A DNA stretch of 36,239 nucleotides from positions 1 to 36,239 of the forward strand of contig NZ_WHJG01000058.1 in assembly GCF_011682175.1 (NCBI RefSeq), read 5' to 3'. Position 1 is the stretch's first letter. Each line of letters begins with the position of its first letter. Of this stretch, positions 392 to 32,416 are shown one piece after another. Below the pieces are notes generated by a model. The model did no database searches. It had not been told where the DNA came from and was given only the letters and a program-made list of their open reading frames with translations. The position numbers and the translations under genes are program-made. Source of the DNA: Massilia frigida (GTDB taxonomy: Bacteria > Pseudomonadota > Gammaproteobacteria > Burkholderiales > Burkholderiaceae_D).

Positions 392-449
392 ACCCCGGTA
401 AGCCTAAGCGCGCTCAAGATCGCGCTTAGTGCAAACCGGGTTTTTTTTC
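392..449 (+). terminator. rRNA operon intrinsic terminator
   Basis: Long interrupted hairpin: outer arms CCCGGT (394-399) and ACCGGG (435-440), inner arms CTAAGCGCG (404-412) and CGCGCTTAG (421-429). A run of eight T follows (441-448). It sits 16 nt after the 5S gene. Confidence 0.92.
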
Positions 450-791
450 GTCCGCAGATTTGCGGCCAGCTTGAGCCAAGCCCAATAGGCCAGCTGGTGG
501 CGCAGTTAAACGGCAGCAGGTCGGTGACGTCATCAGCTCCTGGCTGGCGATCCTGATCACATAGCCCGATGGCGTCCTCACCTCAAGCGCCGGCTCTGCC
601 CGAGCGCTAACGCTTGGCAGCGCAATCAGCTTCGTCGTAGGCCGCGACCGCATCGCCAGGCGCTTGCGCCAGTAGTGGAACGCCGGCGCCGTCAGCCCCT
701 CGCGGACGCACCATGCCTGAATGCCAAGGTCCGCCGAGGCCTGCTCTTGCAGCCGTGCCGACCATGGATGCTGGTTCGATTCTCTTTGCAT
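426..791 (-). pseudogene. IS66-family TnpA (OrfA-like) accessory protein, decayed orphan
   Basis: From a start at 791, preceded by an AGGAG-type ribosome site 8 nt upstream, the protein reads like IS66 TnpA. It has a W-x-x-RL helix, an A-D-L-G-I-Q-A-WC segment, an H-Y-WRKRL segment near residues 40-46, and an E-V-R-T-P-S-G-Y strand near residue 70. After that strand the similarity stops, and the frame runs into the reverse complement of the rRNA terminator. This suggests a frameshift or 3' truncation. The partners TnpB and TnpC (DDE transposase) are absent on both sides, so this is probably a remnant with no mobility. A divergent HTH protein outside IS66 is less likely. Confidence 0.6.
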
Positions 792-885
792 TGTTGCGAC
801 TCCTTCTGTTGTTGGAGCCGCCAGTTTGTTTACCTGGACCAGCAATGGAAGGTGGGGTAAATATCCCGCTGACGAAACAGGGATG

Positions 886-911
886 GCGATCCGGGCCAAG
901 GCCCGGATCGC
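886..911 (-). terminator. perfect 12-bp inverted repeat after the decarboxylase gene
   Basis: GCGATCCGGGCC (886-897) and GGCCCGGATCGC (900-911) form a perfect 12-bp stem with a 2-nt spacer. It begins 18 nt past the stop of the leftward operon. No T-run follows on the minus strand, so it may be a weak or Rho-assisted terminator, or an mRNA 3'-end stabiliser. Confidence 0.5.
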
Positions 912-929
912 GACATGCCGCAAAATCGT

Positions 930-2411
930 TTAGACCTGCTCAGCGAGCATGTCGGACTTGAACGTTTCGGCTAGTTCAACGATATTCTCGAAGAGATCCG
1001 CAAACATGGCGATCGACAGGCAGGGATTGAGGATGGTGAGCTTCAAAGCCACCTTGCCGGCCACCGTGGTCTCGCCCAGTACCGCAATACCCCTCTTGAG
1101 CAAGGCCACGCGTAGCTGGCGATTGAATGCATCGCTACTTTGCGTCTCTGGAAGGTCGGTATAACGGAAAAGAACGGTCGATAACACAGGCGGCGCCAGC
1201 AGTTCAAAGTGCTGGCTTTCGCGGATCAGGCGAGCGATCGCTGTCGTCTGTTGCAGCAGATGATCGACCATCGCTCCCAGCGTTTCCGTTCCAACTGCGC
1301 GCAGCATCATGAACACTTTCAATGCGTCGAAACGGCGTGTCGTCGAGATTGTCTTGTCCACCAGGTTGGGCAAGTCATCCGACTCGCGGTTCAAATAATC
1401 CGCGTGATGCAGCAGATATTTGAAGTCGCACGTGTCGCGCAACAACAATGCGCCACAACTGACTGGCTGAAACCACATCTTGTGAAAGTCGACTATCAAG
1501 GAGTCAGCCAGCTCGATTCCTGCCAGCCGTTGCTTGGCCTGGCTGAGTATCATCGCGCCGCCATAGGCCGCGTCCACATGAAACCAGATACCCGACTCTC
1601 TGGCGATCCGGCTGATTTCGCGCAGGTCGTCCACCGCGCCATGATCGGTGGTGCCAGCCGTGCCGACGATCGCAAAAGGCAGCAAGCCATCGGCCTGCAG
1701 CTGACGCAAGGTCGATTCCAGTGCCTCGACGATCATGGTGCCATCGGGATTGGTTGGAATACGCACGACGGCATGCTGGCCAAGCCCCATGACGGAGGCG
1801 GCCTTTTCAAGCGTGAAATGGCTTTTTGCGGAGCCGATGATCCTGAGCCTGGAAGCATACGGCGGCAATCCGTCGCGCTGCACGTTGTGGCCGGAACGTT
1901 GTTGGGCGAACCAATCCCGCGCGATGAGCAAGGCCATGATATTGCCCTGGGTTCCGCCGCTGGTGAAGACGCCATCGCCTTCATCCGGATAGGAGAACAA
2001 ACTGCATAAGTTGGCGATAACGTGTTGTTCAACGAAGGTCGCTGAACCGGACTGGTCCCACGAATCCATCGACTGATTCTGTGCCGCGATAAAATTTTCG
2101 GCCGCGATCCCGCACAACATCGGTGGTGTGTGCAGATGGGCGATACAGTGCGGGTGTTGAACCATAATCGCATGGCGGGCAATGTCCGTGGCCACTTGCT
2201 TGATGACGGTATCGAGCGGGGCGACATCGTCATTTGCCAGCGACATGCCGAAGATATTCTCCCGCAGTAGCAGCGGATCGATGCCGGAATAGGGCCCCTT
2301 GGCCGATTCGAACACTGCCGCAAGTTCTTGCGTGCAGTTGGCCATGACGTTGCGATAATCCTCGCTGCCGCCCGGACCGGTGTGGATGAAATGCTCTGTC
2401 CAGTTACTCAT
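930..2411 (-). CDS. ddc: L-2,4-diaminobutyrate decarboxylase (PLP-dependent, group II)
   Basis: About 493 aa. Predicted to decarboxylate L-2,4-diaminobutyrate to 1,3-diaminopropane in the cytoplasm. Group II decarboxylase hallmarks are visible: TSGGTQGN near residue 150 (phosphate binding), HVDAAYGG near 278 with the pyridine-nitrogen aspartate (D280), and DFHKMW with the Schiff-base lysine (K311). The start at 2411 is chosen because its ATG overlaps the aminotransferase stop by 8 nt (ATGAGTAA), typical of translational coupling. A longer frame to 2462 exists but lies inside the upstream gene. The family also contains glutamate, tyrosine and aromatic decarboxylases. The adjacent DABA aminotransferase makes diaminobutyrate the best substrate guess. 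Confidence 0.88.
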   Translation of the reverse strand: MSNWTEHFIHTGPGGSEDYRNVMANCTQELAAVFESAKGPYSGIDPLLLRENIFGMSLANDDVAPLDTVIKQVATDIARHAIMVQHPHCIAHLHTPPMLCGIAAENFIAAQNQSMDSWDQSGSATFVEQHVIANLCSLFSYPDEGDGVFTSGGTQGNIMALLIARDWFAQQRSGHNVQRDGLPPYASRLRIIGSAKSHFTLEKAASVMGLGQHAVVRIPTNPDGTMIVEALESTLRQLQADGLLPFAIVGTAGTTDHGAVDDLREISRIARESGIWFHVDAAYGGAMILSQAKQRLAGIELADSLIVDFHKMWFQPVSCGALLLRDTCDFKYLLHHADYLNRESDDLPNLVDKTISTTRRFDALKVFMMLRAVGTETLGAMVDHLLQQTTAIARLIRESQHFELLAPPVLSTVLFRYTDLPETQSSDAFNRQLRVALLKRGIAVLGETTVAGKVALKLTILNPCLSIAMFADLFENIVELAETFKSDMLAEQV

Positions 2412-3819
2412 CGCCCACCTTGGTGCAGGCCGCCAGCGCACGCCCGAATGCTTGTCCGGCAAAGTCGATTTGTTCGGCCGTGATGTTCAGCGGCGGCAGA
2501 AAACGCAGTACCGCGCCGTGGCGGCCACCCTTTTCGATAATCAGCCCATTCTTCAAGGCTGCGCGCTGGATCTGGCTGGCCAATTCCGGATTCGCCAATG
2601 GATGACCGAGTGCATCGGACTGGCCGGGGCAGACAATCTCGACACCCAGCATCAAACCCTTGCCACGAACTTCAGCGATACACGGGTGGATATCTTGTAA
2701 GGCACGCAGTTGCGCGCTCAGGCGTTCGCCCATCAGGTTGGCGTTGCCGGTCAGTTTATCGCGCCCGATGATTTGCAGTGTCTTGGCGCCCGCCACCATG
2801 GCCAGTTGATTGCCACGGAAAGTGCCGGCGTGCTCGCCCGGATTCCACGTGTCGAATTCTTTTTTAAACACCAGGCAGGACAGAGGCAAGCCGCCGCCGA
2901 TCGCCTTGGACATGATCAGGATGTCCGGATCGATGCCCGCATATTCGAAGGCAAAATTGCTTCCAGAGCGGCCAATGCCGCACTGGATTTCATCGAATAT
3001 CAGGAGAATTCCCAGTTCACTGGTGATGCGGCGCAATTCGCGCAGCCAATAAGCAGAGGCGGCGATTACCCCGCCTTCACCCTGGATTGGTTCCAGGATG
3101 ATCGCTGCCGGCCGCACGATGCCGCTCTCCTGGTCATGCAAAACGGATTCGATGTAGCGAATCGATGCGCGCTCGCCAGCTTCGCCGCCCAGGCCGAATT
3201 TGCAACGCAGATTGTAGGGATAGGGGAAGAAATGGACGTCAGGCATCAGCCCGCTACGGCGCATTTTCGCATTCAAATTTCCCATCAATGCCAGCGAACC
3301 GTTGGTCATGCCATGGTAAGCGCCATGAAAGGAAATGATATTGCTGCGCCCCGTCACCTGCTTGGCCAGTTTGAGCGCGGCCTCGACGGCGTCGGAGCCG
3401 GACGGGCCGCAGAACTGGATGCACGCATTGGCGGCAAACGACTCCGGCAGGAAGGCCATCACTTCCCGGATAAACGCATCCTTGACGGGCGTGGTGACAT
3501 CGAGCGTCTGGAAGGGCAAGTCGGCCCGGATGTGGTCGATAATTTCTTTCACCACTTCGGGGTGATTATGGCCAAGCGGCAGTGCGCCCGCCCCCGACAG
3601 GCAATCAAGATACGATTGGCCGTTGGTGTCTTCGACCAGTGCGCCCTGGGCACGTTTGATCGCAATGGGGAAGCGCCGTGGATAGGACCTCACCTCGGAT
3701 TCGAGATTCTCCTGATTGGTCAACGCCGGATTGGTTGGGAACTGATAGTTGCCCGCATTGCTCAACGTGATGCAGTCCGGCTTGGCGTGTGTCAGGAATT
3801 CTTCTGTAGCTCTGTTCAT
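2404..3819 (-). CDS. dat: diaminobutyrate--2-oxoglutarate transaminase (class III)
   Basis: 471 aa. Class III PLP aminotransferase expected to make L-2,4-diaminobutyrate from aspartate semialdehyde, with glutamate as amino donor. Visible: CGPSGSDAVEAALK near residue 137, FHGAYHG near 164, FDEIQCGIGRSG around 275 with the cofactor aspartate, and SKAIGGG at 304 with K305 as PLP lysine. The order Dat then Ddc is the one seen in rhizobactin 1021 (RhbA, RhbB) and in acinetobacter-type diaminopropane loci. The start at 3819 gives the usual N-terminus; longer upstream frames run into the neighbouring gene. Separated by 41 nt from the monooxygenase stop and overlapping the decarboxylase by 8 nt, so very likely one transcript. 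EctB of ectoine synthesis is related, but no ectA or ectC is nearby. Confidence 0.9.
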   Translation of the reverse strand: MNRATEEFLTHAKPDCITLSNAGNYQFPTNPALTNQENLESEVRSYPRRFPIAIKRAQGALVEDTNGQSYLDCLSGAGALPLGHNHPEVVKEIIDHIRADLPFQTLDVTTPVKDAFIREVMAFLPESFAANACIQFCGPSGSDAVEAALKLAKQVTGRSNIISFHGAYHGMTNGSLALMGNLNAKMRRSGLMPDVHFFPYPYNLRCKFGLGGEAGERASIRYIESVLHDQESGIVRPAAIILEPIQGEGGVIAASAYWLRELRRITSELGILLIFDEIQCGIGRSGSNFAFEYAGIDPDILIMSKAIGGGLPLSCLVFKKEFDTWNPGEHAGTFRGNQLAMVAGAKTLQIIGRDKLTGNANLMGERLSAQLRALQDIHPCIAEVRGKGLMLGVEIVCPGQSDALGHPLANPELASQIQRAALKNGLIIEKGGRHGAVLRFLPPLNITAEQIDFAGQAFGRALAACTKVGDE

Positions 3820-3860
3820 TTTGCTGTTCCAATGATGGGAAATGTATGTCGACGGTGGGG

Positions 3861-5195
3861 TTATGCGTTTTTGGCGCTGTCGCGCCACTGGTCGGCGATG
3901 CCGAAGTTCTGGAACACTGTCCTGGTTCTGGCCGGATAACGTTCCTTGCCGAGTAATTTGTTGATGATCACCGCGCTGCGGTAGGCACCCAGTCCCAGGT
4001 CCGGTGCGGCAATACCATGGCTGTGCATTTCGCCGTTTTGAACGAAGATGGTGCCGGGGATATCCGCGGACGTTTTCAACGTGTAATCGCGGGTGATGCA
4101 GGGACGGTTGTCCGCATCGAATTCGATGGATGGGCGAAGATCGCTCAGGCACGCCGGGAAGACATACTGATAGCCTGTTGCCAGTACCAGCGCCTCGGTC
4201 TTGACCTGGAATGTCTGCTGCAATTCGAGATGCTGGAACTCGAGCTGGAATCCGTCACCGACCCGCGCGATTTTCTCCAGCTGGCTGCATGCCTGCAAGA
4301 CGGAACGGTTGGGTTGATCGATCGAGCGCGCATACAGGCAATCGTAGATTTCCTTGATGGTGCTGAAGGAAATCCCCTTGTACCAATTGCCTTGCTTTGC
4401 CAGGATGGATTTGCGCTGCGTCTCCGGCAATCCATAGAAGTGTTCGACGTAATCGGGGGAAAAGTGTTCCAGGCCCAGCTTCGAATACTCCATCGGAAAG
4501 AACCCATTGCTGCGTGTCAGCCAATCGAGTTCATAGCCAAACTGCGGCTGGTCGCGCAGCAGGTCGAGGAAGACCTCCGCCGCACTTTGCCCTCCGCCGA
4601 TCACCGTGATGTGCTTCTTGCGCTGGAGTTCAGGCTTGACGAACATGTACTGCGACGAGTGCGCGCAGTCGGCGCTGTTTTTGAAATCGCTGGCGGCGCG
4701 CGGCCAGTTCGGCACGGTGCCGACCCCGAGCACGATATTGCGCGCCAAATAGCGGGCTTGCTCGCCGGTGCGGCTGTTCTTGACCGTGATGCGAAACAGC
4801 GTGTCGACCACCTCGATCCCCACCACCTGGTGCGAAAACGCGATGTTGCTCAGTTTCTCGCTGACCCATTGGCAATAGCGGTTGTATTCGACGCGCGGGA
4901 TCTGGAAATTCTCGTAGAAATAGAATTGCAGCAGGCGGCCCTGTGCGTGCAGGTAGTTCAAGTAGCTGTAAGGGCTGGTCGGATCCGCCATGGTCACCAG
5001 GTCGGCCATGAAGGGAACCTGCAGGTGGCAATCCTCCAGCAGCAAACCCTCGTGCCAATTGAAGCGTTCTTTCGCCTCGAAGAATTTGACTTTCAGCGTG
5101 TCGACCGGCTCCAGCAGCGATGCCAAGCCAAGGTTGAACGGGCCGACACCGACCCCGATCAGATCAAAAATGTTGTTTTCTGCAGAAATGCTCAT
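3861..5195 (-). CDS. L-lysine/L-ornithine-type N-hydroxylating monooxygenase, probably acting on 1,3-diaminopropane
   Basis: 444 aa, the family length of IucD, PvdA and RhbE. FAD- and NADPH-dependent N-hydroxylation of a primary amine. Visible: GVGVGPFNLGL near residues 14-24 (FAD loop), a conserved WHEGLLLED segment near 47, GGGQSAAE near 200 (NADPH loop), and ATGYQ with a late GLGAYRSA segment. Substrate is inferred from context. The two genes downstream make diaminobutyrate and diaminopropane, so N-hydroxy-1,3-diaminopropane is the likely product, as for RhbE. Lysine or ornithine cannot be excluded. The product could feed a hydroxamate siderophore or an N-N bond-forming step. Confidence 0.88.
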   Translation of the reverse strand: MSISAENNIFDLIGVGVGPFNLGLASLLEPVDTLKVKFFEAKERFNWHEGLLLEDCHLQVPFMADLVTMADPTSPYSYLNYLHAQGRLLQFYFYENFQIPRVEYNRYCQWVSEKLSNIAFSHQVVGIEVVDTLFRITVKNSRTGEQARYLARNIVLGVGTVPNWPRAASDFKNSADCAHSSQYMFVKPELQRKKHITVIGGGQSAAEVFLDLLRDQPQFGYELDWLTRSNGFFPMEYSKLGLEHFSPDYVEHFYGLPETQRKSILAKQGNWYKGISFSTIKEIYDCLYARSIDQPNRSVLQACSQLEKIARVGDGFQLEFQHLELQQTFQVKTEALVLATGYQYVFPACLSDLRPSIEFDADNRPCITRDYTLKTSADIPGTIFVQNGEMHSHGIAAPDLGLGAYRSAVIINKLLGKERYPARTRTVFQNFGIADQWRDSAKNA

Positions 5196-5250
5196 ACTGG
5201 GACTTTAAGTTGGTAATATCACGCGTTGATATCGGGTTGGATTGAACAGG

Positions 5251-5913
5251 CTAGTTGTTGGCTTTTGCCCAGCTTGTGACATAGTCCGGCGTCGGCACCG
5301 CCTCATTGCCGGCGCCGATCGGATCCCCGTGAATCGTCTTCAGCGGCAGCACGCCGGCCCACACGGGTAAATCGAGATCTTCTTCCTTGTCGACCGGCCC
5401 GTTGTTGCTCACTTTTGCCGCGGCTTCGTCCAGCGACACCCGCAGCACATTGGTGGCGGCCAGTTCCTTGGCGTTGCCGGTCCGCGCTTCGTGCTGGCGT
5501 CCGGACGCAAGCTTGTCCATGAAGATATCCATGGCTTCCATCTTTTTCGCGTTTCCCCTGACCTGCTCGAAAACGCCATAGATGACGGCGGACCGGTAAT
5601 TCATGCTGTGGCTGAAGGCCGATTTCGCCAGAACCAGCCCGTCGATATGGGTCACCGCGATCGATGCCTGCGCGCCGCCCAGCAGTGCCTTGACCATGCG
5701 GCTGCCATTCGACCCGTGGATATAAAGATGGTTGTCGATGCGCCAGCATGCGGTCGGAATGCAGTGAATACTTTCTCCGTCATGGAATGCGATATGGCAG
5801 ACATACGCTTCATCCAGAATGGCATGCAGCGTTTCTTGTTCGTAGTCCGCCAGTTCGGCAATGCGGCGAACGCGCGTGCGTGGCGAGGGAGGGGCGGAGG
5901 ATCGCTGGCCCAT
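5251..5913 (-). CDS. FMN-binding split-barrel protein (pyridoxamine-5'-phosphate oxidase-like)
   Basis: 220 aa. Resembles the Pyridox_ox_2 (PF12900) type of flavin-nucleotide-binding proteins: an R-I-A-E-L-A-D-Y entry, an IPTACWR strand, the YIHGSNGSRM motif, an FSHSMNYRSAVIYG strand, and a C-terminal DLPVWAGVLPL motif. No signal peptide. Substrate and cofactor (FMN, F420 or heme) cannot be read from the sequence. It lies 55 nt upstream of the N-monooxygenase and 109 nt downstream of the methyltransferase in the same direction, so it is probably part of the pathway. Piperazate synthase (KtzT/PaiB) has the same broad fold and works on N-hydroxylated ornithine. That parallel is suggestive only, since this is a different subfamily. 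Confidence 0.75.
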   Translation of the reverse strand: MGQRSSAPPSPRTRVRRIAELADYEQETLHAILDEAYVCHIAFHDGESIHCIPTACWRIDNHLYIHGSNGSRMVKALLGGAQASIAVTHIDGLVLAKSAFSHSMNYRSAVIYGVFEQVRGNAKKMEAMDIFMDKLASGRQHEARTGNAKELAATNVLRVSLDEAAAKVSNNGPVDKEEDLDLPVWAGVLPLKTIHGDPIGAGNEAVPTPDYVTSWAKANN

Positions 5914-6022
5914 GATTGTTCCGTTTCTAAAGAGAGAATTCCGCCGGCAAAACCGATGGAGAGAGGGGCGCCGTCCAGCGCGGCCGCCAAAGCGCCGGGC
6001 TGGCGACGCGGATGAGCAGTGC

Positions 6023-6826
6023 CTACATTTTCATCAGTGCGTAGGAAACGTAGACCAATTGACCGTGATTCAATTCATCCCAGATGGTCGTGCCGACGCA
6101 TGCCCATTCGTTGAGCCACCAGGCCGCGCGCGCGTCGCTCAAGCCCATGTCCTTGATCAGCGCCACTTTCCGGGCATTGTCCGCAGCCAGGCTGGCCAGG
6201 ACATTGGCCGTAATATCCCGGCTTCTTACCAGTTCCACCGGAAGCTGGCGAAGCTTGGCTTCAATTTCCCGGCTCTTTTCCGGCGTCACCAGATCCGCAT
6301 AGCAAAAATAACCCCCCGGTTTGAGGATGCGCAGCGTTTCGGAATAGAAGCTGTCAAGGTTCGGATAGCAATGCGACGATTCGATGTTGACCACGACATC
6401 CTTCGACGCCGAGTCAAATGGCAGTTGCTCGGCATCGCCCTGGACAAAGGACAAGCCATCGATCGCAAAGCTGCTCCTGGCGATATCCACGCTCTGGCCC
6501 AGATATTCCAGCCCCGCCACGCTCCTGGCGCCGCAGTATTTCTTCATGTAGTAGGCCCCGCCCCCGCGTCCTGAGCCAACCTCGACGATGTCTTTGTCAT
6601 GCAACGATGTTGCTGACGTGACGAAGTGGTAGAGCTGTGCGGAAATCTGGAAATCCCGGTCCTGTGCTTCAAGCAGGGGCATCGGCGGCAACGGCGCCGC
6701 ATAGCCATACCCATAGTTCAAAAACGGCTGGTAGCGGCTGCCCAGTTCATTATTCACCCGGGTATACATGTCGGTCACCGTGCCATGCATGTCGTGCGCA
6801 TCATTCTTGCTGAGTTCTGTATCCAT
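6023..6826 (-). CDS. class I SAM-dependent methyltransferase
   Basis: 267 aa from the ATG at 6826 (N-terminus M-D-T-E-L-S-K). A longer frame extends upstream but has no conserved content. Motif I is VEVGSGRGGG (81-90), followed by an acidic post-I region (AGLEYLGQSVD), FVQGDAEQLPF and LKPGGYFCYADL. It belongs to the Methyltransf_11 / small-molecule methyltransferase group, including lipid and sterol-type enzymes. The methyl acceptor cannot be predicted. A hydroxylamine oxygen or amine nitrogen of the pathway product is an inference from context. Intergenic gaps of about 100 nt on each side leave room for an internal promoter, but none is clear. Confidence 0.85.
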   Translation of the reverse strand: MDTELSKNDAHDMHGTVTDMYTRVNNELGSRYQPFLNYGYGYAAPLPPMPLLEAQDRDFQISAQLYHFVTSATSLHDKDIVEVGSGRGGGAYYMKKYCGARSVAGLEYLGQSVDIARSSFAIDGLSFVQGDAEQLPFDSASKDVVVNIESSHCYPNLDSFYSETLRILKPGGYFCYADLVTPEKSREIEAKLRQLPVELVRSRDITANVLASLAADNARKVALIKDMGLSDARAAWWLNEWACVGTTIWDELNHGQLVYVSYALMKM

Positions 6827-6933
6827 GTTGATGTGATCTGAAAGAGAAAGCCTGTTTTGCCAGAATAATGAGCCATGACTGGCGCTTGGGCCGCCGTGCC
6901 GTACGACGCGGTGGATGATCGCTTGCGCGCCTG

Positions 6934-7407
6934 TCAGCTTGCTGGTTGCAGCATCTGGTGATACGTGATGTACACTTGTTCCTGCTCGTATCCCAGCGAC
7001 TCGTAGAGATGCTGCGCGATCTTGTTGCTTGTCGCGGTATCGAGGGTCAATCGCTGCGCGCCTTCGGCGGCAAATTGCTCGCTCACCGCCTGCATCAGGA
7101 ACCTGGCATACCCATTTTGTCGGCAGGATTGATCGACGTACAAGTCGGAAAGGTAGTAATAGGGTTTCATCGAAATCGAGCAATAGCTCGGGTACAGCTG
7201 CGAAAAACCGACCGCCTTGCCTGCCGGGTCGAGCAGCAGCAACAGGCGCGAGCGTTTCTTTTCAACGTTGTCGCGGATGAAGGCGTAGCACGCGGGCAGG
7301 TCGCTTTCCTGTTCGTAGAACATGCGGTAGGCGTTAAAAAGTTCCGCCGCGCTTTGCAGGTGCTGTTCGGCGCATTCGACAATTGTCATGTTGGGTGCCG
7401 TTGACAT
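6934..7407 (-). CDS. GNAT-family N-acetyltransferase
   Basis: 157 aa, a normal single GNAT domain. The acetyl-CoA pyrophosphate loop reads RQNGYA (96-101), after the typical YYLSDLYVD strand. The C-terminal ASLGY-like end is NKIAQHLYESLGYEQE. The ATG at 7407 shares a base with the stop of the VOC gene (TGATG), indicating coupled translation. In rhizobactin- and aerobactin-type pathways an acetyltransferase converts the N-hydroxyamine to a hydroxamate, but RhbD/IucB belong to a different acetyltransferase branch. Whether this one acylates the hydroxylamine or confers self-protection is unknown. Confidence 0.82.
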   Translation of the reverse strand: MSTAPNMTIVECAEQHLQSAAELFNAYRMFYEQESDLPACYAFIRDNVEKKRSRLLLLLDPAGKAVGFSQLYPSYCSISMKPYYYLSDLYVDQSCRQNGYARFLMQAVSEQFAAEGAQRLTLDTATSNKIAQHLYESLGYEQEQVYITYHQMLQPAS

Positions 7408-7853
7408 CAGTTCACCTGCCCGATTTCGATCTGGACGCCATTCAGGTCGCGGAAAAAGAAGGCTTGATAACCACCCAGTTCAGTGGCGACATACGGTGCG
7501 TCGGTCGTCGTTTCCAGGCCCAGTTGCTTGACCTTCTGGAACGTGTCGGCGATGTCGTCCACCATGAATGCCAGGTGAATGCCGCACACGTCGTTGTGAT
7601 TGGCCACCAGGTGCCTGCCTTTCGATCCGAGGTGCTCGATCAGCTCGAAATTGCGATTGCCGATGCGCGCCATGCAGGACTTGTAGTCCGGGTTCTTGAC
7701 CCGGATGACCGCCCCGACACCGTCGCCGGTGATACGGACAGTCTCTTCGAAAATCTCGACGCTGGTGAGCTTGCGATAGAAGTCGAGGGTGTCTTCGATA
7801 CTCAGGACGGTGAGGCCGACGTGGTTAAGACCGGGGAGAAGTTGATTAGTCAT
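7407..7853 (-). CDS. VOC-family (glyoxalase/dioxygenase fold) protein
   Basis: 148 aa, one complete vicinal-oxygen-chelate unit. The four expected metal ligands are present: H11 (LNHVGLTV), E70 (FELIEH), H93 (GIHLAF) and E143 (VQIEIG). This supports a metal-dependent lyase, isomerase or dioxygenase, although some VOC proteins are binding or resistance proteins. The ATG at 7853 overlaps the stop of the adenylation gene by 8 nt, so the two are translationally coupled. Its role in the pathway is unknown. Conversion of an alpha-keto or hydroxylamine intermediate, or drug binding for immunity, would both fit. Confidence 0.8.
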   Translation of the reverse strand: MTNQLLPGLNHVGLTVLSIEDTLDFYRKLTSVEIFEETVRITGDGVGAVIRVKNPDYKSCMARIGNRNFELIEHLGSKGRHLVANHNDVCGIHLAFMVDDIADTFQKVKQLGLETTTDAPYVATELGGYQAFFFRDLNGVQIEIGQVN

Positions 7854-9567
7854 TTTCAGTGAGGTTGTGGACGAGGAATTCGATGGTGGGATTGTCCAGA
7901 AAATCGATGAAATCGATCCGGACGCCGTAGTGCGTTTCAATAGAGCTGAGCAGGCGGACTATATTGATGGAGGTGCCTCCCAATTCGCGGAAATTGGAAG
8001 ACGGCTGCAAGCTGGCGGCGTCGAGCATCAGCTCGTTCGCCCACAGTGCGATGATGGGTGCGTAGTGGTCATCGCGGGTGCCGGCGCAGGCTGCCGCGGG
8101 AACAAAATCGGGCAGTGCCGCATAGTCCACCTTGCCGCTGATCTTGTAGGGAAAGCGCGCCAAGCCGATGACGTGCTGTGGAATCTTGTAGTCGCTCAGG
8201 ATGCTTGCCAGGCGCGCGCGCAGGGCCTCGCCATCAAGGTCGGTGTCGGCGTCGCTATCGGCAACGATGTAAGCAACCAGCGCTCCCTGCGCGCTCACTT
8301 TCACCGCCACCTCCGCATAGCCGAGGCGCTTGAGCGCCCCTTCGATCTCTTCGAGTTCGACGCGAAAGCCGCGCACCTTGACCTGGCGGTCGATCCGCCC
8401 GAGAAAGCGCAAGTCGCCTTGCTCATCGCGCTCGACCAGGTCGCCGGTCTTGTAGAGGCGGCCGGCATCGAGCGTGGGAAGATGCAGGAACGTTTGCGCG
8501 TTGACGTTGGCATTGCCAATGTAGCCGGGCGAGACAGCCACGCCTGCGACGTACAGCTCGCCCCTGCTGGCCGGCTCCCTGTTCTCGTCGAGAACATGCA
8601 GGCGCACGCCGGGAATCGCCTTGCCGATATTCGATTGCGGACACGTGCCATCCATGCGCTTGTAGCTGACCAGGACCGTGCATTCCGTTGGCCCGTACAG
8701 ATTGTAGAGCCGGCGTCCCGCAAGCCAATCCTGCATGGCTTGCGGGCTGCATGCCTCGCCACCGGTGAGCAAGGTGGTGATGCCGGGGAAGCGTTGGGCG
8801 GACAGGCTGGCCAGCAGTGCCGGCGACAGGAACGCATGGGCAATCTCGTGGCGCGCGCAGAACTCGGCCAGTTCAGCCTCGGACAAACGCTGTTTCTGGC
8901 TGGGGATGCACAGCGTCGCGCCGGACAGCAAGGTGGGAAAGATATCGAGTATCGATGCATCGAAATTGATCGTCGAATACTGCAATGCGCGCACGCCTGG
9001 TGCGAGCGTAAATTCCGCGATCGCCCAGTCCACCAGATTGAGCAAACTCGTGTGGCTGATCGGCACACCCTTGGGGCGTCCGGTGGAACCGGAAGTGAAA
9101 ATCGTGTACGCAATGTCCGCGCCGCTGGCACGCACGACGTCCACACGCGCGGCCGGGAGCGAGCCGGCGCGCTGACAGTCGGCGGGAGCAATCACGGCGG
9201 CCCCGCCGACCCCCGCAAGCAGCGCATCATGCGCGACAATCAGCTGGCAGCGGCAACTGAGCACCACATGCTCTTGCACGTCGCGCTGTAATTGCGGATC
9301 GATCGGGACGTAGCTGGCGCCGGTGCCCAGAATGCCCAGGATCGACAGATACAGATCGGCACATTTATCGATGCAGATGCCGATGACATCCGCCGGGCCG
9401 GCGCTGCGGCCCTGATGGGCGAGGAACCACGCATCGATGGCCGATGCCATCTGGCCTGCCCGTTGGTACAAGGCCGCATAGCTCAGCGCCTCCGTATCCG
9501 ACAGCAGGGCCGTGGTGCCGGGATGGGCTTGCACGATGGCGCGAAAGCGCGAAACGATGGTGCTCAT
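7846..9567 (-). CDS. stand-alone NRPS adenylation-PCP didomain
   Basis: 573 aa. Activates an amino acid as its AMP ester and loads it on its own carrier domain. Motifs in order: A3 FTSGSTGRPKG (157-167), A4 with INFDAS (D203 is the aspartate that usually anchors an alpha-amino group), A5 NLYGPTEC, A7 YKTGDL, A8 FLGRIDRQVKVRGFRVE, and A10 YKISGKVDY. A peptidyl carrier domain at about 505-573 carries the phosphopantetheine serine in FRELGGTS (S533). There is no condensation, reductase or thioesterase domain. My reading of the specificity positions is D-A-L-F-L-G-L-V-L, a hydrophobic pocket; this is by eye and not a firm prediction. The ATG at 9567 shares its A with the KAS III stop (TAATG). Confidence 0.9.
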   Translation of the reverse strand: MSTIVSRFRAIVQAHPGTTALLSDTEALSYAALYQRAGQMASAIDAWFLAHQGRSAGPADVIGICIDKCADLYLSILGILGTGASYVPIDPQLQRDVQEHVVLSCRCQLIVAHDALLAGVGGAAVIAPADCQRAGSLPAARVDVVRASGADIAYTIFTSGSTGRPKGVPISHTSLLNLVDWAIAEFTLAPGVRALQYSTINFDASILDIFPTLLSGATLCIPSQKQRLSEAELAEFCARHEIAHAFLSPALLASLSAQRFPGITTLLTGGEACSPQAMQDWLAGRRLYNLYGPTECTVLVSYKRMDGTCPQSNIGKAIPGVRLHVLDENREPASRGELYVAGVAVSPGYIGNANVNAQTFLHLPTLDAGRLYKTGDLVERDEQGDLRFLGRIDRQVKVRGFRVELEEIEGALKRLGYAEVAVKVSAQGALVAYIVADSDADTDLDGEALRARLASILSDYKIPQHVIGLARFPYKISGKVDYAALPDFVPAAACAGTRDDHYAPIIALWANELMLDAASLQPSSNFRELGGTSINIVRLLSSIETHYGVRIDFIDFLDNPTIEFLVHNLTEND

Positions 9568-10505
9568 TATTGCTCCATCCCGGTTGGCAGCTTCTCCAGG
9601 ATGCACGCGCCCCATTGGAAGGGGCCGGTGCTAAATAACAGCAGCCGCGCGCCGGCGCGCACCTCACCCGTGGCCGCCACGTGGTGCAGGTTGATCAGGT
9701 TATCGGAGCTAAAGCAGTGGGCGTGGGTCGCGATGGTGCCGGTATAGGCGGTCGCGTAGCTCAGGTTGGCAAGCTGGCAGTAGAGCCGGCTGGCGGCATA
9801 GGAATAGTTATTCGTGATGTAAACATCGATCTCCTTCGCTTTCAGTTCGGCCGATGCATAGGTCGCCTTGATCAGCTGCGAAATGCAGCGCATTTCACTG
9901 TCCAGCGATGGTGCGAGAATTTGCTGGCCATCGTAACGATTGACGACCTTGCCAAGCAGCCGATAATCCATGCCGGTCGGCTCGCTGCTGAAGATACAGG
10001 CTGCCGCCGCGTCACCGGTTACATAAGGAAAATCGCTTCCCGCGCCATACAGCCGCTGCAACCTGCCGCCCGCCTTGTCGAAACTGACAAACAAGATGTG
10101 CTTGCACTGATCCGCCGCAATCAGGCTCGCGGCCAGCCGCGCCGCCCAATGAAAGCCGCCACACCCTGCCATCCCGACCTGGTAATGCACCGCATGGGAC
10201 AGGCCCAGGCGCGCATTCAATTCGCCCAGCCAGCCCGGTTCCAGGTTGTCCTGGGCGTCGAGCATGTTCGAGACCAGGAACACGGCGTCGATGTCCTTGG
10301 CCTGCAAACGGGCGCTGGCCAGGGACCGTTGAATGGCCACATCGACCAGCTCAAAGATGCTTGAGGTGCATTGCGGGAAAAGATTGGCGCCGTGCTCGGC
10401 GTGCCGCAACTGTGCGCACAGGGCGCTGTCGGCAATTTCGCTTTCGAGCGGCACGAAGCCGCCGGCGGCATACTCGGGAGCGCCTAGATAAACTGGTCGA
10501 ATCAT
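9567..10505 (-). CDS. KAS III-like condensing enzyme or acyltransferase
   Basis: 312 aa, thiolase fold of the FabH group. The nucleophile is C115 in GMAGCGGFHWA. The position where FabH has its HQAN histidine reads ITNNYS (~230), so that histidine is missing. Instead of the FabH GNTSAAS loop there is THAHCFSSDNLINL (260-273). The H-x-H-x5-D-x-x-INL pattern is what I associate with KAS III-like acyltransferases such as CerJ, ChlB3 and DpsC. It is therefore unlikely to be the housekeeping FabH. Being coupled to an A-PCP gene, it may transfer the aminoacyl or a derived acyl group from the PCP to an N or O nucleophile. First gene of the tight block; only a weak ribosome site is visible. Confidence 0.82.
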   Translation of the reverse strand: MIRPVYLGAPEYAAGGFVPLESEIADSALCAQLRHAEHGANLFPQCTSSIFELVDVAIQRSLASARLQAKDIDAVFLVSNMLDAQDNLEPGWLGELNARLGLSHAVHYQVGMAGCGGFHWAARLAASLIAADQCKHILFVSFDKAGGRLQRLYGAGSDFPYVTGDAAAACIFSSEPTGMDYRLLGKVVNRYDGQQILAPSLDSEMRCISQLIKATYASAELKAKEIDVYITNNYSYAASRLYCQLANLSYATAYTGTIATHAHCFSSDNLINLHHVAATGEVRAGARLLLFSTGPFQWGACILEKLPTGMEQ

Positions 10506-10592
10506 GAATCAACGATCTTGTGTGGGCTATCCACAAGGCCCCATGGAGGCGAACCTTGACAACATAGCGTGGGTTGAGGGTGCAAGCCGGGC

Positions 10593-11096
10593 TTAGTCTT
10601 TCCAGAACAATGGATGACGAACCACCACCTTCAACAGCTTGTCCGATTGCTGCCAAATCCCCTGGAAGCCTTGCGGCAGCACGAAAATATCGCCGTCGGA
10701 ATAGCTTGCCGTTTCGCCGCCCGGTCCGGTGACCGTGACGCGGCCGCGGATGAGGTGAATCACTTCGGTTTCGGGCCAACCCAGAATCTGCAGTTTGACG
10801 GGATCGATTTCGCACACTTCCACCGCCGCCTCTTTCGTCTTGAGCGTGTAGGGGACGTAGCAGCGATAAGAAAAATGCGTCCCATCGAGCACCTGGTAGT
10901 GGCCCGGGTCCGCATCCGGGGCGTGGGTCGTTTTGATGTTGGCGGGGATCGTTTTGGCGATCTGCACGGTGGGCCCGGCGCCAGCTGCCTCGGCCGCATG
11001 AACGCCGGCGGGCGCCAGCATGGTCAGCAGCGCCACGACGGGCGATACGGCGAGCGCCTTCAAGGCATTGACTTGTTTGGAATCGGTGATTTTCAT
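10593..11096 (-). CDS. secreted cupin-domain protein
   Basis: 167 aa from the ATG at 11096. The N-terminus (M-K-I-T-D-S-K then a hydrophobic stretch ending V-H-A-A) looks like a Sec signal peptide, so the protein should be periplasmic. The rest is one cupin barrel of the Cupin_3/DUF861 style: ETEVIHLIRGRVTV, a glycine turn TGPGGETASY, and DGDIFVLPQGFQGIW. The usual metal-binding histidines are mostly replaced, so catalysis is doubtful and ligand binding is possible. It sits 87 nt before the KAS III gene in the same direction, which suggests but does not prove membership of the biosynthetic locus. Confidence 0.75.
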   Translation of the reverse strand: MKITDSKQVNALKALAVSPVVALLTMLAPAGVHAAEAAGAGPTVQIAKTIPANIKTTHAPDADPGHYQVLDGTHFSYRCYVPYTLKTKEAAVEVCEIDPVKLQILGWPETEVIHLIRGRVTVTGPGGETASYSDGDIFVLPQGFQGIWQQSDKLLKVVVRHPLFWKD

Positions 11097-11217
11097 GATG
11101 TTCAATAAGCAAAAAAACAAGCGGATGCGCCTCTGGCGGGCCGGGCTATCGCCTGGCGCGCTGCGACCTGCGCACCATCGCGATGGCCCGGCCGGACGCC
11201 TTGCGGCGGCCAGGGGG

Positions 11218-12084
11218 TTAAATGGTCTTTGACAGGGACAGGATGGCCGTGCGCTTGCCGGGGCTGATGTGCTGGCCGTTATTGGTCAGCGAACCGTAGT
11301 TCCTGAACGCCTTTGGTTTGCTGGTGAACGAGGCCGCAAGACCGGCGGACCAGCCGCCGCCCAGTTCGCCCGTCACGCCGACGCGGCCATAGTTCCAGTT
11401 GACGTCGCGGCTGTGCGGAACGCGCTGGCGGCCGATCGTCGTCTGCAAGCTCCAGCCTTCCTTGAGCGCAAGCGTGTAGCTCCCTTCGATATTGACAGCG
11501 CCTTTCGAATCGCCGGTCAGGCCGGCCTGGGGCTGTTCCGCGTTAAAAACACCGTTGACGCCGGAATTGTTCACATTCCATCCAAAGAACGCGCCTGGAA
11601 TGTAGGCCGCGCGCAGATTGACCCCGGCAACGGTGGCGCTCGCATAAAGCTCCAGCGTGCGCGGATCCGCATCGTCGAATGCCGGTGTGAACGATGCCTT
11701 GTTGAAATTCGCACCCGGGTAATAGGCGTACACGCCGCCCAGGTCCAGTTCCACGCCTTTGAGCGAGGCTTTATATCCCAGGCTCAAGTCGGTTTCCAGT
11801 GAACCATTGGGTACATACTGGGCGCTGATATTCGAGGCGAACAAGCTGGCGTAAGCGCCGCTGGCATGGTCGGCCGTGACGCTGGCCTGCAAGGCCGGTT
11901 TACCCCAGGTTTGGGAAAACCCGCGCCAGATATAATCGGATACGACGCTAACCTGGCCCGCTACCTTCATGCCGCTGTCCGCTGCGTCGGCTGCGTGAGC
12001 GCTCATCGCCAGGAGCGTGACGCCCAGGAACGCTGCGCATGCCATGGCAAGCGAACGAAGAGAATGCGGGGAAGGGGACTTCAT
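11218..12084 (-). CDS. TorF-family putative outer-membrane porin
   Basis: 288 aa from the ATG at 12084, with a GGAG ribosome site about 10 nt upstream. Signal peptide with positive start (KSPSPHSLRS), hydrophobic core (ACAAFLGVTLLAM) and SAHAADA cleavage region. The mature part opens with GQVSVVSDYIWRGFSQTWGKPALQ, the hallmark of the TIGR02001/Gcw_chp (TorF) family, and ends in alternating beta-barrel strands with LSLSKTI. Probably an outer-membrane channel. It is the most upstream gene on this strand. The 254-nt divergent gap to the response regulator holds an AT-rich stretch near 12150-12240 and no recognisable operator. Export or uptake for the neighbouring pathway is possible but unproven. 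Confidence 0.8.
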   Translation of the reverse strand: MKSPSPHSLRSLAMACAAFLGVTLLAMSAHAADAADSGMKVAGQVSVVSDYIWRGFSQTWGKPALQASVTADHASGAYASLFASNISAQYVPNGSLETDLSLGYKASLKGVELDLGGVYAYYPGANFNKASFTPAFDDADPRTLELYASATVAGVNLRAAYIPGAFFGWNVNNSGVNGVFNAEQPQAGLTGDSKGAVNIEGSYTLALKEGWSLQTTIGRQRVPHSRDVNWNYGRVGVTGELGGGWSAGLAASFTSKPKAFRNYGSLTNNGQHISPGKRTAILSLSKTI

Positions 12085-12338
12085 GACTGACGGACTCCGT
12101 GATGATCGATATATGCGTGACACACCCTTGGCGCCAGTAGTCCTGTTGCCAAATTTGCTAGTTGTATTTTCAAAAAAGTATATCACCGGTGCAATGTTGT
12201 CACCATTCAATCTGGGTAATTTGCAATTTTTTTTCGCGAAAGTTTGGCGGGGGCACATTTGCCGGGATGAATTCCTTACTGCCCGGGGCAGATGCACGCG
12301 CTTGCGCGCCGCCCCGGCTTGTCCACTAGAATAGCCCC

Positions 12339-13028
12339 ATGCGCCTGCTCATCATCGAAGACAATCCCGACATCGTGGCCAACCTCTACGGCTTTCTTGA
12401 ACCCAAGGGCTACATCCTCGACTCGGCCGCCAACGGCTACGCCGGCCTGGCCCTGGCCGCCCAGCATACCTATGATGCCGTGGTCCTCGACGTCATGCTG
12501 CCCGGCCTGACAGGCCTGGATATCTGCCAAAAACTCCGCAGCGAACTTAACAGCACCATTCCGGTACTGATGCTGACCGCGCGCGACACGCTGCAAGACA
12601 AGGTCGCCGGCTTCGACAGCGGCGCCGACGATTACCTGGTCAAGCCATTTTCCCTGGTCGAACTCGACATCCGCCTGAAAGCCTTGCTGCGCCGCGCCAA
12701 CGGCGCCGTCGGCAGCGCCGCCATCCTGCGCGTGGGCGAGCTGAGCTTTAACACCGGCACCTACCAGGCCAGCCGCGCCGGCCAGCCCCTGGCCCTGACC
12801 AAAACCGGCTACACCATCCTCAAATGCCTGATGCGCGAGGCGCCCAAGGTCGTGCCGCGCCACGTCATCGAACAAGCTATCTGGGGCGACGACCGTCCCG
12901 ACAGCGACGCCTTGCGCACCCACATCCATGCCCTGCGCCAAGCCCTCGACAAACCCTTTCCCGCCGCCATGCTGCGCACGGTGCCGGGCCTCGGCTTCAA
13001 ACTGGTCAATCCCGATGAAGCCGCGTAA
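12339..13028 (+). CDS. OmpR/PmrA-family response regulator
   Basis: 229 aa. Receiver domain 1-115 with acidic pair E7/D8, phospho-acceptor D51 (VLDVMLPG), T80 and K102 (LVKPF). C-terminal winged-helix domain ~130-222 ending in RTVPGLGFKL. Closest in type to QseB/PmrA regulators. It overlaps the histidine kinase by 14 nt, so they form one unit. The start has no Shine-Dalgarno sequence, and a TAGAAT box ends 6 nt before the ATG, raising the possibility of leaderless translation. Downstream eptA and the phased repeats at 14244-14281 suggest it regulates lipid A modification. Confidence 0.92.
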   Translation: MRLLIIEDNPDIVANLYGFLEPKGYILDSAANGYAGLALAAQHTYDAVVLDVMLPGLTGLDICQKLRSELNSTIPVLMLTARDTLQDKVAGFDSGADDYLVKPFSLVELDIRLKALLRRANGAVGSAAILRVGELSFNTGTYQASRAGQPLALTKTGYTILKCLMREAPKVVPRHVIEQAIWGDDRPDSDALRTHIHALRQALDKPFPAAMLRTVPGLGFKLVNPDEAA

Positions 13029-14259
13029 CTCCCTGCGGCGCCGGATCGCCGTGGCCTACCTGCTGTTCGCGCTGGGCTCGTCGCTCTTTCTCGCGGCGAT
13101 CGCCATCGCGGCGGTGGAGGGGATCGAAGTCCACCTGGTCGACAACCGCCTCGCCGAGGCCGCCGCCTGGGCAGCGCCGCGCCACGCCGGCGGCTTGCCG
13201 GTCGGCATGCCTGCCGGCCTGAGTTTCCACCATGGCGCAGCGATTCCCGAGCCACTGCGCCATCTCCCCGAAGGCGTCGGCGAAGTGCACGTCGACGGCA
13301 TCGGCCTGCATGTACTTGCCGGCAAGGATGCAAGCGGCGATTACGTGGTCGTCGACCATGAAAGCGATTACGAAAAGGTTGAACTGGTGGTCTATTCGAT
13401 GTTCGGCTTGGGCTTCATCGGCATCATGCTGTTTTCGCTGTTCCTGGGCGGCTTCATCGGACGCCGCTTCGTCACCCCGATCACCACCCTGGCCACTGCC
13501 GTGCGCGACAGTTCCTCCGAATTGCCGCTGCTGGACCGTAACGACGAACTCGGCACCCTGGCGCGCGCCTTCGCCGCCCATACCAGCGAACTGCGCATTT
13601 ACCTCGAACGCGAGCGCCTGTTCACGGGCGACGTCAGCCACGAACTGCGCACGCCGCTGACCGTGATTACCGGCGCCGCCGAAATCATCATCGCCCAGCA
13701 CGACGCCAAGCCCGCCACCGCCGCCGCGGCCGAACGCATCCTGCGCGCCGCCAACGAAGCCTCCGCCTGCGTCAACGTCTTGCTGACCCTGGCGCGTTCG
13801 CGCGACCGCATCGCCCACCCCGTCACCAGCATCGACCAGATCGCGCGCGCCGAAACCGCGCGTTCCCAGTCGCTGGTCGCGGGCCGGCCGGTGGCGCTGC
13901 GCTTCCTCGGCGGCCCCGCCTTCGCCATCGCCGCGCCGCCCGAGCTGCTGGTGGCCGCCGTGGGTAACCTGATCCGCAATGCCTGCCAGTACACGCTGCA
14001 GGGCGAGGTGTCGGTACGGCTCGGTGAAGGCCTGGTGCGGGTGGAAGATACCGGCCCCGGCCTGCCGCTCGCCGTGCGCGCCACCTTCGACCAGGAACAA
14101 AGCGCGGCGCCCGGCGCCGGGTCGGCCGGTTCCGGCCTGGGCCTGGCCCTGGTGCGGCGCATCTGCGAATATCTCGGCGCCACCTTGCTTTTTAGTGAAC
14201 GCGATGGCGGCGGCAGCGTTTTCGAGATACGCTTCAGCGACGCTTTAACAAATTCTTAA
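13015..14259 (+). CDS. sensor histidine kinase (PmrB/QseC-like)
   Basis: About 414 aa, inner membrane. TM1 ~11-34, a short periplasmic sensor of roughly 90 residues, TM2 ~123-147, then a HAMP-like linker. DHp H-box is FTGDVSHELRTPL with the phospho-histidine near residue 209. ATPase domain with N-box NLIRNACQYT, G1 VRVEDTGPGLPL and G2 GSGLGLALV. The start at 13015 overlaps the regulator stop by 14 nt. The sensor segment shows no clear ExxE ferric-iron motif as in PmrB, so the signal is unknown. The 3' end of the coding region contains two of the four phased repeats described separately. Confidence 0.9.
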   Translation: MKPRNSLRRRIAVAYLLFALGSSLFLAAIAIAAVEGIEVHLVDNRLAEAAAWAAPRHAGGLPVGMPAGLSFHHGAAIPEPLRHLPEGVGEVHVDGIGLHVLAGKDASGDYVVVDHESDYEKVELVVYSMFGLGFIGIMLFSLFLGGFIGRRFVTPITTLATAVRDSSSELPLLDRNDELGTLARAFAAHTSELRIYLERERLFTGDVSHELRTPLTVITGAAEIIIAQHDAKPATAAAAERILRAANEASACVNVLLTLARSRDRIAHPVTSIDQIARAETARSQSLVAGRPVALRFLGGPAFAIAAPPELLVAAVGNLIRNACQYTLQGEVSVRLGEGLVRVEDTGPGLPLAVRATFDQEQSAAPGAGSAGSGLGLALVRRICEYLGATLLFSERDGGGSVFEIRFSDALTNS

Positions 14260-14281: not shown

Positions 14282-14347
14282 TGTTCTCAACTGTATCTTC
14301 AATAGCGTGCCGTCCTGGTCGACGGCGCCGCTCACCTGGAGATATTG

Positions 14348-32409: not shown

Positions 32410-32416
32410 CTCTCCC

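What the first reader, a model, noticed from the sequence alone, without database searches (positions are those of the whole stretch)
930..10505. Unusual hydroxylamine pathway: diaminopropane N-hydroxylation coupled to a KAS III / A-PCP assembly unit
Nine same-strand genes, several overlapping by 1-8 nt, combine Dat, Ddc and an N-monooxygenase (the known route to N-hydroxy-1,3-diaminopropane) with a stand-alone A-PCP protein, a KAS III-like enzyme, a VOC protein, a GNAT enzyme, a methyltransferase and a split-barrel protein. No IucA/IucC synthetase, condensation domain or thioesterase is present, so it is not rhizobactin or another standard NIS siderophore. The combination does not match any pathway I can name. 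A small N-hydroxylated or N-N bonded metabolite made from an amino acid and diaminopropane would fit.
Basis: partly seen in the sequence, partly recalled or inferred. Interest (0 to 1): 0.78.

Follow-up and report, generated by a model that had tools for sequence, protein, structure and literature searches.

The report
Condensation-domain-free hydroxylamine metabolite gene cluster
A compact, rare set of bacterial genes seems to make a small molecule by joining an activated amino acid to an N-hydroxylated diamine without the usual peptide-joining enzyme; no described pathway matching it was found here, so its product and joining chemistry may be undescribed.

Summary
At 930-10505 nine minus-strand genes encode a KAS III-like protein, A-PCP, VOC, GNAT, methyltransferase, PNPOx-fold protein, diamine-type N-monooxygenase, Dat and Ddc. 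The unit is larger: a secreted-looking cupin (10593-11096) and a TorF-family porin (11218-12084) belong to it. The 11-gene block is one indel between an rrn operon and a two-component/EptA operon; relative G009 lacks it.

The core KAS-(A-PCP)-VOC-GNAT-NMO is syntenic in 10 of 10 loci (2 Massilia-type, 3 Acidovorax/Paracidovorax, 5 Pseudomonas), all found through KAS; the cupin is in 9. Dat-Ddc are in the five non-Pseudomonas loci only, so diaminopropane supply is an accessory. MT and PNPOx are in the two Massilia-type loci only.

Best reading: NMO makes an N-hydroxydiamine, GNAT caps an amine, A-PCP loads a small aliphatic amino acid, and the KAS III-fold protein (Cys115; FabH's His and Asn replaced by Asn232 and His263) transfers it in place of a condensation domain, giving an aminoacyl hydroxamate or ester on which the VOC acts. 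Not NIS, not canonical NRPS. Every reaction is inferred; the product is unknown; N-N bond formation stays open.

The parts
11218..12084 (-). TorF-family putative outer-membrane porin, first gene of the block
   Evidence: TIGR02001 89.8 bits, cut-off 47.15; inside the indel block; also in L037, and a 147-aa match in L033
10593..11096 (-). cupin with signal-peptide-like N-terminus (judged by eye); two conserved Cys; no conserved HxH metal motif
   Evidence: PF05899; in 9 of 10 loci, split over two frames near its end in L032; conserved residues; 40 hits (one the window's own), 15 longest-contig lengths shared with KAS
9567..10505 (-). KAS III-fold protein, proposed aminoacyl transferase in place of a condensation domain (Cys115, Asn232, His263, Asp268 invariant in 39 aligned)
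   Evidence: PF08541/PF08545; alignment A1; residue equivalence to FabH; model pLDDT 90.4; best fold ChlB3, then NatS, DpsC, FabH, CerJ
7846..9567 (-). stand-alone A-PCP; specificity positions read by eye as DALFLGLVLK (small aliphatic amino acid)
   Evidence: PF00501, PF00550; best solved match LgrA; motifs nearly constant in the 8-9 of 10 loci where they were extracted
7407..7853 (-). VOC protein with H/E/H/E ligand set
   Evidence: PF00903/PF13669; H8, E67, H90, E140 invariant in 27 aligned; all four motif patterns in 13 of the 22 left out, 7 of the rest being short fragments; 48 hits
6934..7407 (-). GNAT acetyltransferase, polyamine-acetyltransferase-like
   Evidence: PF00583; best solved match 2eui (probable acetyltransferase), then DpA polyamine acetyltransferase 8a9o/8a9n
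6023..6826 (-). SAM methyltransferase, lineage-specific
   Evidence: PF08241; only in window and L037 of 10 loci
5251..5913 (-). PNPOx-like split-barrel protein, lineage-specific
   Evidence: PF12900 126.5 bits; only in window and L037 of 10 loci
3861..5195 (-). flavin N-monooxygenase of the diamine-hydroxylase type
   Evidence: PF13434 402 bits; closest solved: 5o8p (titled L-lysine 6-monooxygenase involved in desferrioxamine biosynthesis) 393, 7us3 putrescine N-hydroxylase 382, 6xbb 378 bits; next is MbtG at 189
2404..3819 (-). Dat, diaminobutyrate-2-oxoglutarate transaminase (accessory supply)
   Evidence: TIGR00709 561 bits, cut-off 401.6; in 5 of 10 loci
930..2411 (-). Ddc, L-2,4-diaminobutyrate decarboxylase-like (accessory supply, would give 1,3-diaminopropane)
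   Evidence: PF00282; NF052646 423.5 bits, below its equivalog cut-off 900; in 5 of 10 loci
398..12318 (.). approximate extent of the block absent at the same site in relative G009 (5S rRNA, about 570 bp, then RR-HK-EptA)
   Evidence: no KAS match in G009, G002, G016

Best explanation
This is a small, self-contained, gained-or-lost-as-a-block biosynthetic module for a hydroxylamine-derived metabolite, assembled without a condensation domain. Inferred route: (1) a diamine (1,3-diaminopropane from Dat-Ddc in the Burkholderiales loci; probably putrescine or another cellular diamine in Pseudomonas) is N-hydroxylated by the NMO; (2) the GNAT acetylates one end, most likely the free amine; (3) the A-PCP loads a small aliphatic amino acid as a thioester; (4) the KAS III-fold protein takes the aminoacyl group onto Cys115 and hands it to the N-hydroxydiamine, giving an aminoacyl hydroxamate (or O-ester); (5) the VOC metalloprotein binds the vicinal C=O/N-O pair and acts at the alpha carbon or the N-O bond (epimerisation first choice); (6) the product is handled outside the cytoplasm by the cupin, with the porin as an outer-membrane route in some lineages. 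MT and the PNPOx-fold protein decorate the Massilia-type version. Shown: gene content, synteny, conserved residues, family relationships, block indel. Inferred: every reaction and their order.
For: Core order KAS-(A-PCP)-VOC-GNAT-NMO in 10 of 10 loci, cupin in 9 of 10. NMO sits with 7us3 (putrescine N-hydroxylase), 5o8p and 6xbb (that the last two are diamine enzymes is recalled). GNAT resembles a polyamine acetyltransferase. A-domain motifs nearly constant with and without Dat-Ddc. KAS has Cys115, but FabH's His and Asn are replaced by Asn232 and His263; the Asn232, His263 and Asp268 motifs are also in the left-out members that reach there, with P0037 Ser at 233. Best fold ChlB3 acyltransferase. 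Precedent: BomK, KS-like, makes an amide and CerJ a C-O bond (PMC10006239, passages); AzsD, KAS III family, moves an acyl group from one carrier protein to another (PMC10445470, passages), and a 26.2%-identical relative with the same NN and H....D motifs lies in an azs-like Sinorhizobium cluster. VOC ligands invariant in 27. The 11-gene block is a single indel.
Confidence: 0.5

Rival explanations
1. N-N bond route: the KAS III-fold protein esterifies the hydroxylamine oxygen with the amino acid, and the VOC metalloprotein rearranges the ester to a hydrazine, a PCP-based analogue of the MetRS/cupin hydrazine synthetases and of VlmA/VlmO.
For: In described systems an N-hydroxylated amine plus an aminoacyl ester is rearranged to a hydrazine by a metal enzyme (PMC11705231, passages). 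NMO, aminoacyl activation, a candidate transferase and a metalloprotein are all present. A distant KAS relative sits in an azs-like hydrazine cluster.
Against: The review PMC11705231 has no occurrence of 'glyoxalase' and no paper listed holds 'vicinal oxygen chelate', so no VOC precedent was found. The cluster's own cupin has a signal-like N-terminus and its single His is Gln in 3 of 9 loci, so it is unlikely to be a cytosolic metallo-cupin synthetase. In azs, hydrazinoacetate synthesis is assigned to the Spb38-40-like proteins and the KAS acts later (PMC10445470, passages).
Confidence: 0.17
2. Acetohydroxamate variant: the GNAT acetylates the hydroxylamine nitrogen, and the KAS-like protein joins the amino acid to the other, free amine as a plain amide; the product is a small monohydroxamate metallophore.
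For: N-acetyl-N-hydroxyputrescine is a known siderophore unit (fimsbactin, recalled). A FepA-family TonB receptor lies beside the Pseudomonas locus L034, with 757-aa ORFs of near-identical N-terminus in the close relatives L042 and L043.
Against: The GNAT is polyamine-acetyltransferase-like, and PF13523 (siderophore hydroxylamine acylases, recalled) was not hit at E<=0.001. No Fur-box-like site exceeds the 95% level of shuffles in the ten upstream stretches tested (one L031 stretch equals it).
Confidence: 0.2
3. The KAS III-fold protein is a true condensing enzyme that extends an acyl or aminoacyl thioester by C-C bond formation; the N-hydroxydiamine is attached otherwise.
Against: The His and Asn that FabH uses for decarboxylation (roles recalled) are replaced in all 39 aligned members. 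No enzyme that would supply an extender unit was recognised among the cluster proteins.
Confidence: 0.08
4. Two unrelated gene groups that happen to be adjacent.
For: Dat-Ddc, MT and PNPOx vary between loci.
Against: Core order identical in 10 of 10 loci across Massilia-type, Acidovorax/Paracidovorax and Pseudomonas; the whole block is one indel.
Confidence: 0.02

Closest known systems
KAS III-family acyltransferases of natural-product pathways (AzsD/Tri13, BomK, CerJ, ChlB3)
   Same: KAS-type fold, nucleophilic Cys, acyl transfer without C-C bond formation; AzsD takes the group from a carrier protein (PMC10445470, passages); BomK makes an amide, CerJ a C-O bond (PMC10006239, passages)
   Different: Here the donor is apparently an aminoacyl A-PCP and the presumed acceptor an N-hydroxydiamine; identity to solved structures is at most 20% in the rows shown
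Diamine N-hydroxylase siderophore pathways (desferrioxamine DesB/DfoA, fimsbactin FbsI)
   Same: NMO closest to solved enzymes of these pathways (protein names DesB, DfoA and FbsI recalled); N-hydroxydiamine plus acylation
   Different: No IucA/IucC-type synthetase in the cluster, and none in 8 of 10 cluster-bearing genomes; no Fur box evidence
Rhizobactin-type N-hydroxydiaminopropane supply (Dat/Ddc, RhbA/RhbB)
   Same: Dat and Ddc homologs with an NMO
   Different: Ddc below the RhbB equivalog cut-off (423.5 of 900); no IucA/IucC; Dat-Ddc absent from 5 of 10 loci
Azaserine/triacsin hydrazinoacetate clusters (azs, tri)
   Same: N-hydroxylase, stand-alone adenylation and carrier proteins, GNAT, KAS III-family transferase (PMC10445470, passages)
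   Different: No MetRS-like or acyl-CoA-dehydrogenase protein among the cluster proteins; a VOC instead
Valanimycin pathway (VlmA/VlmO)
   Same: N-hydroxylated amine plus amino acid logic (PMC11705231, passages)
   Different: Aminoacyl-PCP rather than aminoacyl-tRNA; no membrane or diiron-oxygenase family hit among the ten proteins scanned; no direct VlmO search was made
Pbo cluster of P. syringae pv. phaseolicola
   Same: KAS III-family gene beside NRPS fragments
   Different: Different gene set (condensation domain, KS, radical SAM, ATP-grasp); no N-monooxygenase in its table, and the word monooxygenase does not occur in the text (PMC8473136, section 25 and passages)

Membership tests
NIS siderophore cluster | IucA/IucC-type synthetase encoded | tested here: not met
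   PF04183 absent from own genome and from 8 of 10 cluster-bearing genomes counting it; present elsewhere in G200 and G201
Canonical NRPS cluster | condensation domain with A-PCP | tested here: not met
   None among the ten cluster proteins scanned; condensation domains occur on other contigs, so in-trans action remains open
FabH-type decarboxylative ketosynthase III | Cys-His-Asn catalytic set (recalled) | tested here: not met
   Cys115 kept; His position is Asn232 and Asn position is His263; TIGR00747 44.2 of 292.1 bits
KAS III-family acyltransferase (AzsD/BomK/CerJ kind) | KAS III fold with Cys and altered His/Asn | tested here: met
   that altered His/Asn marks this kind is my inference
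KAS III-family acyltransferase (AzsD/BomK/CerJ kind) | acyl transfer activity | not testable with these tools
   needs enzyme assay
Diamine N-hydroxylase (DfoA/FbsI/DesB) | closer to solved diamine-type hydroxylases than to the lysine/ornithine ones | tested here: met
   378-393 bits for 5o8p, 7us3, 6xbb; 189 or fewer for MbtG and the ornithine/lysine enzymes below it. Only 7us3 is titled as a diamine enzyme; 5o8p is titled lysine 6-monooxygenase; the diamine use of 5o8p and 6xbb is recalled
Histamine N-monooxygenase TIGR04439 equivalog | score over 700 bits | tested here: not met
   466.7 bits
MetRS/cupin hydrazine synthetase | cytosolic zinc cupin and MetRS-like domain | tested here: not met
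   The one cupin has a signal-like N-terminus and no conserved HxH; no MetRS-like hit among the ten proteins
Active metal VOC enzyme | four conserved metal ligands | tested here: met
   H8, E67, H90, E140 invariant in 27 aligned; ligand roles recalled from VOC enzymes; activity not tested
Fur-regulated siderophore operon | Fur box upstream | tested here: inconclusive
   No site above the 95% shuffle level in ten stretches, one equal to it; simple consensus count only; L037 and L043 not scanned
Characterised MIBiG cluster | same gene set with known product | not testable with these tools
   MIBiG not available; the papers listed by literature searches (several lists capped) do not describe this gene set in title or abstract start; of six papers passages were read

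The most novel reading that the evidence does not exclude
A carrier-protein-based hydrazine-forming pathway: the KAS III-fold protein esterifies an N-hydroxydiamine with an amino acid from a stand-alone A-PCP, and the cluster-specific VOC metalloprotein rearranges the ester into an N-N bond. This would be a tRNA-free and MetRS-free solution to intermolecular hydrazine synthesis and, as far as I know, the first VOC enzyme to do it.
Probability: 0.15. Interest if true: 0.85.

Novelty: new variant of a known kind. Interest (0 to 1): 0.6.

Why it matters
If right, six small proteins do what an NRPS module, a condensation domain and a tailoring set usually do, with a KAS III-fold enzyme as the joining catalyst between an aminoacyl carrier and an N-hydroxylated diamine. 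That is a compact, testable biocatalytic route to hydroxamates or hydrazines. Three small protein families (KAS, VOC, cupin) appear largely dedicated to it, so the module can be found by simple search; in Pseudomonas avellanae it lies next to integrating-conjugative-element genes.

Tried and rejected
Rejected or unhelpful: NIS siderophore (no IucA/C in the cluster); the Pbo phaseolotoxin-associated cluster (different genes); iron regulation (no convincing Fur box); cupin as metallo-hydrazine synthetase; anti-phage defence models for VOC, cupin and GNAT (no hits); actinonin/matlystatin warhead logic (AurF-like N-oxygenase, PMC5719088 passages). Foldseek/VIA ranking does not separate acyltransferases from FabH by more than about 2 Z. 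A fold of the VOC (A2) could not be obtained.

Limits of the counts: one search matched KAS in 40 of 196 relatives at E<=0.001, but only the source genome and G012 have the ortholog; the other 38 are 22-33% KAS III-type matches. Alignment A1 holds the window and 38 of 45 KAS hits; the 7 left out (partial, fused or distant) were checked by pattern only: three fragments of 176-191 aa show no Asn/His motif, P0042 lacks the Cys part, P0037 has Ser at position 233, and in P0045 (27% identity) no Cys motif was matched. A2 holds the window and 26 of 48 VOC hits; of the 22 left out, 13 show all four motif patterns, P0071 and P0079 miss one, and seven are fragments of 83-109 aa. In one search the VOC of L035 and L036 was mis-framed by my script (tblastn shows them at 61-64%); the L037 A-PCP was mis-framed, so the A-domain motifs cover 8-9 of 10 loci. 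Genome searches scored only a few candidates per genome: A1 in 398 genomes of the Pseudomonas genus, 4 hits; in 399 of the Paracidovorax family, 2 hits; A2 in 399 of the order, 1 hit, the source genome. Two of those KAS matches carry a TGA (G201, G198); the ORFs in L036 and L033 are open for 308 and 316 aa. Eleftheria terrae has VOC and cupin entries with one contig length but no KAS entry with it; not followed up. One search compares only the listed longest-contig lengths. Of the ten plasmid hits I looked at five neighbourhoods; Halioglobus shows no adenylation gene that I recognised among its listed ORFs.

Literature: PMC8473136 passages and section 25; PMC11705231, PMC10445470, PMC10006239, PMC7204872 and PMC5719088 passages only; all others seen in search listings only.

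Full report
What is there. The window is a whole contig of a Massilia-type genome (G000, 7.79 Mb in 255 contigs); the name is inferred from 90% identity to a protein labelled Massilia antarctica. It starts with the 3' end of a 23S rRNA and a 5S rRNA. On the minus strand, running from 12084 down to 930, lie eleven genes: TorF-family porin, cupin, KAS III-like, A-PCP, VOC, GNAT, methyltransferase, PNPOx-fold protein, flavin N-monooxygenase, Dat and Ddc.

Boundaries. Relative G009, whose EptA is 92% identical to the window's and which has no KAS match, has the same rrn operon end followed after about 570 bp by the same response regulator, kinase and EptA operon. The segment corresponding to window about 398-12318 is missing as one piece. 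G002 and G016 have the same flanks with about 2.7 kb between and none of the cluster genes at E<=1e-6. G012 (M. antarctica-like) carries the block at the same site (L037). So porin, cupin, MT and PNPOx were gained or lost together with the rest.

Conservation. A genome-collection scan with the KAS alignment gave six further loci, a Pseudomonas-genus search two more, and relatives gave L037. Counting the window, 10 of 10 loci keep KAS-(A-PCP)-VOC-GNAT-NMO in this order. 9 of 10 have the cupin (not L033, where a porin match of 147 aa directly precedes KAS; in L032 the cupin is split over two frames near its end). 5 of 10 have Dat-Ddc (all non-Pseudomonas) and 2 of 10 have MT and PNPOx. All these loci were found through KAS. 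Separate protein searches with VOC and cupin found similarly small families: 45 KAS (E<=1e-3), 48 VOC (E<=1e-15) and 40 cupin (E<=1e-6, one the window's own) entries, each a 90%-identity cluster, among 5.8 billion. Of these, 16 KAS/VOC and 15 KAS/cupin pairs share the identical longest-contig length. VOC and cupin thus look largely private to this module. In P. avellanae (L035) the module is followed by integrating-conjugative-element genes (TIGR03745, TIGR03746, TIGR03749, TIGR03752).

Which diamine. The NMO's closest solved relatives are 5o8p (titled lysine 6-monooxygenase involved in desferrioxamine biosynthesis), 7us3 (putrescine N-hydroxylase) and 6xbb at 378-393 bits; the next, MbtG, has 189. 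That 5o8p and 6xbb are diamine hydroxylases is recalled. It falls well short of the histamine N-monooxygenase equivalog cut-off (466.7 of 700). The five Pseudomonas genomes lack a close Ddc: none in G200 and G201, and only 31-32% matches in G199, G304 and G310. Since the A-domain motifs hardly change between the two groups, I infer one chemistry with different diamines, Dat-Ddc being a supply accessory.

Which amino acid. The A-domain's best solved match is linear gramicidin synthase LgrA. Reading the ten specificity positions by eye (GrsA numbering recalled) gives DALFLGLVLK, an aliphatic-type pocket with the Asp that binds an alpha-amine. Val, Ala, Leu or Ile are all possible.

VOC, GNAT and cupin. 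The VOC has all four metal ligands invariant in 27 sequences, so it is probably an enzyme; a hydroxamate offers exactly the vicinal oxygens this fold chelates (inference). The GNAT's best solved matches are 2eui (probable acetyltransferase) and then DpA polyamine acetyltransferase, which suggests capping of the free amine rather than of the hydroxylamine. The cupin has a signal-peptide-like N-terminus, two conserved Cys and a His that is Gln in 3 of 9 loci, so a secreted, probably metal-free binding or maturation role is likeliest.

What it is not. IucA/IucC is absent from 8 of the 10 cluster-bearing genomes, the source genome among them. None of ten upstream stretches shows a Fur-box-like site above the 95% shuffle level, and the FepA-type receptor beside L034 is weak evidence for iron. 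It is not the Pbo cluster. No paper in the lists of the ten completed literature searches (several lists capped) describes this gene set in its title or abstract start; MIBiG was not available.

Verdict. A real, rare biosynthetic module, gained or lost as a block; new variant of a known kind. The N-N reading stays open at about 0.15.

Noticed in passing
28941-34949 (+): Tn7-like transposon genes: TnsA-like, Mu-transpos_C (TnsB-like), TniB, TniQ, and a 491-aa ORF without Pfam match.
   Followed up: no
12339-15988 (+): OmpR-type response regulator, histidine kinase and EptA-type phosphoethanolamine transferase, divergent from the cluster; EptA matches at E<=1e-150 in 14 of 17 genomes of the genus.
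   Followed up: partly
24623-27454 (+): 943-aa TonB-dependent receptor.
   Followed up: no
L033:9463-10906: Acidovorax locus lacks the cupin; a short porin-like ORF (156 aa) abuts KAS, as if a deletion had removed the cupin.
   Followed up: no
P0042: A 449-aa protein joins an MFS-transporter part to the C-terminal half of this KAS family; likely a broken or rearranged copy.
   Followed up: no
L050:7598-10895: Halioglobus plasmid: P450, a distant KAS III-like gene (27%), a further ORF and a VOC protein in a row, again KAS with VOC.
   Followed up: partly
L049/L051 (Sinorhizobium meliloti pSmeSM11b): An azs-like gene set (NMO, FAD enzyme, class I tRNA ligase, GNAT, C45 peptidase, AzsD-like KAS) on a plasmid typed as conjugative.
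   Followed up: partly
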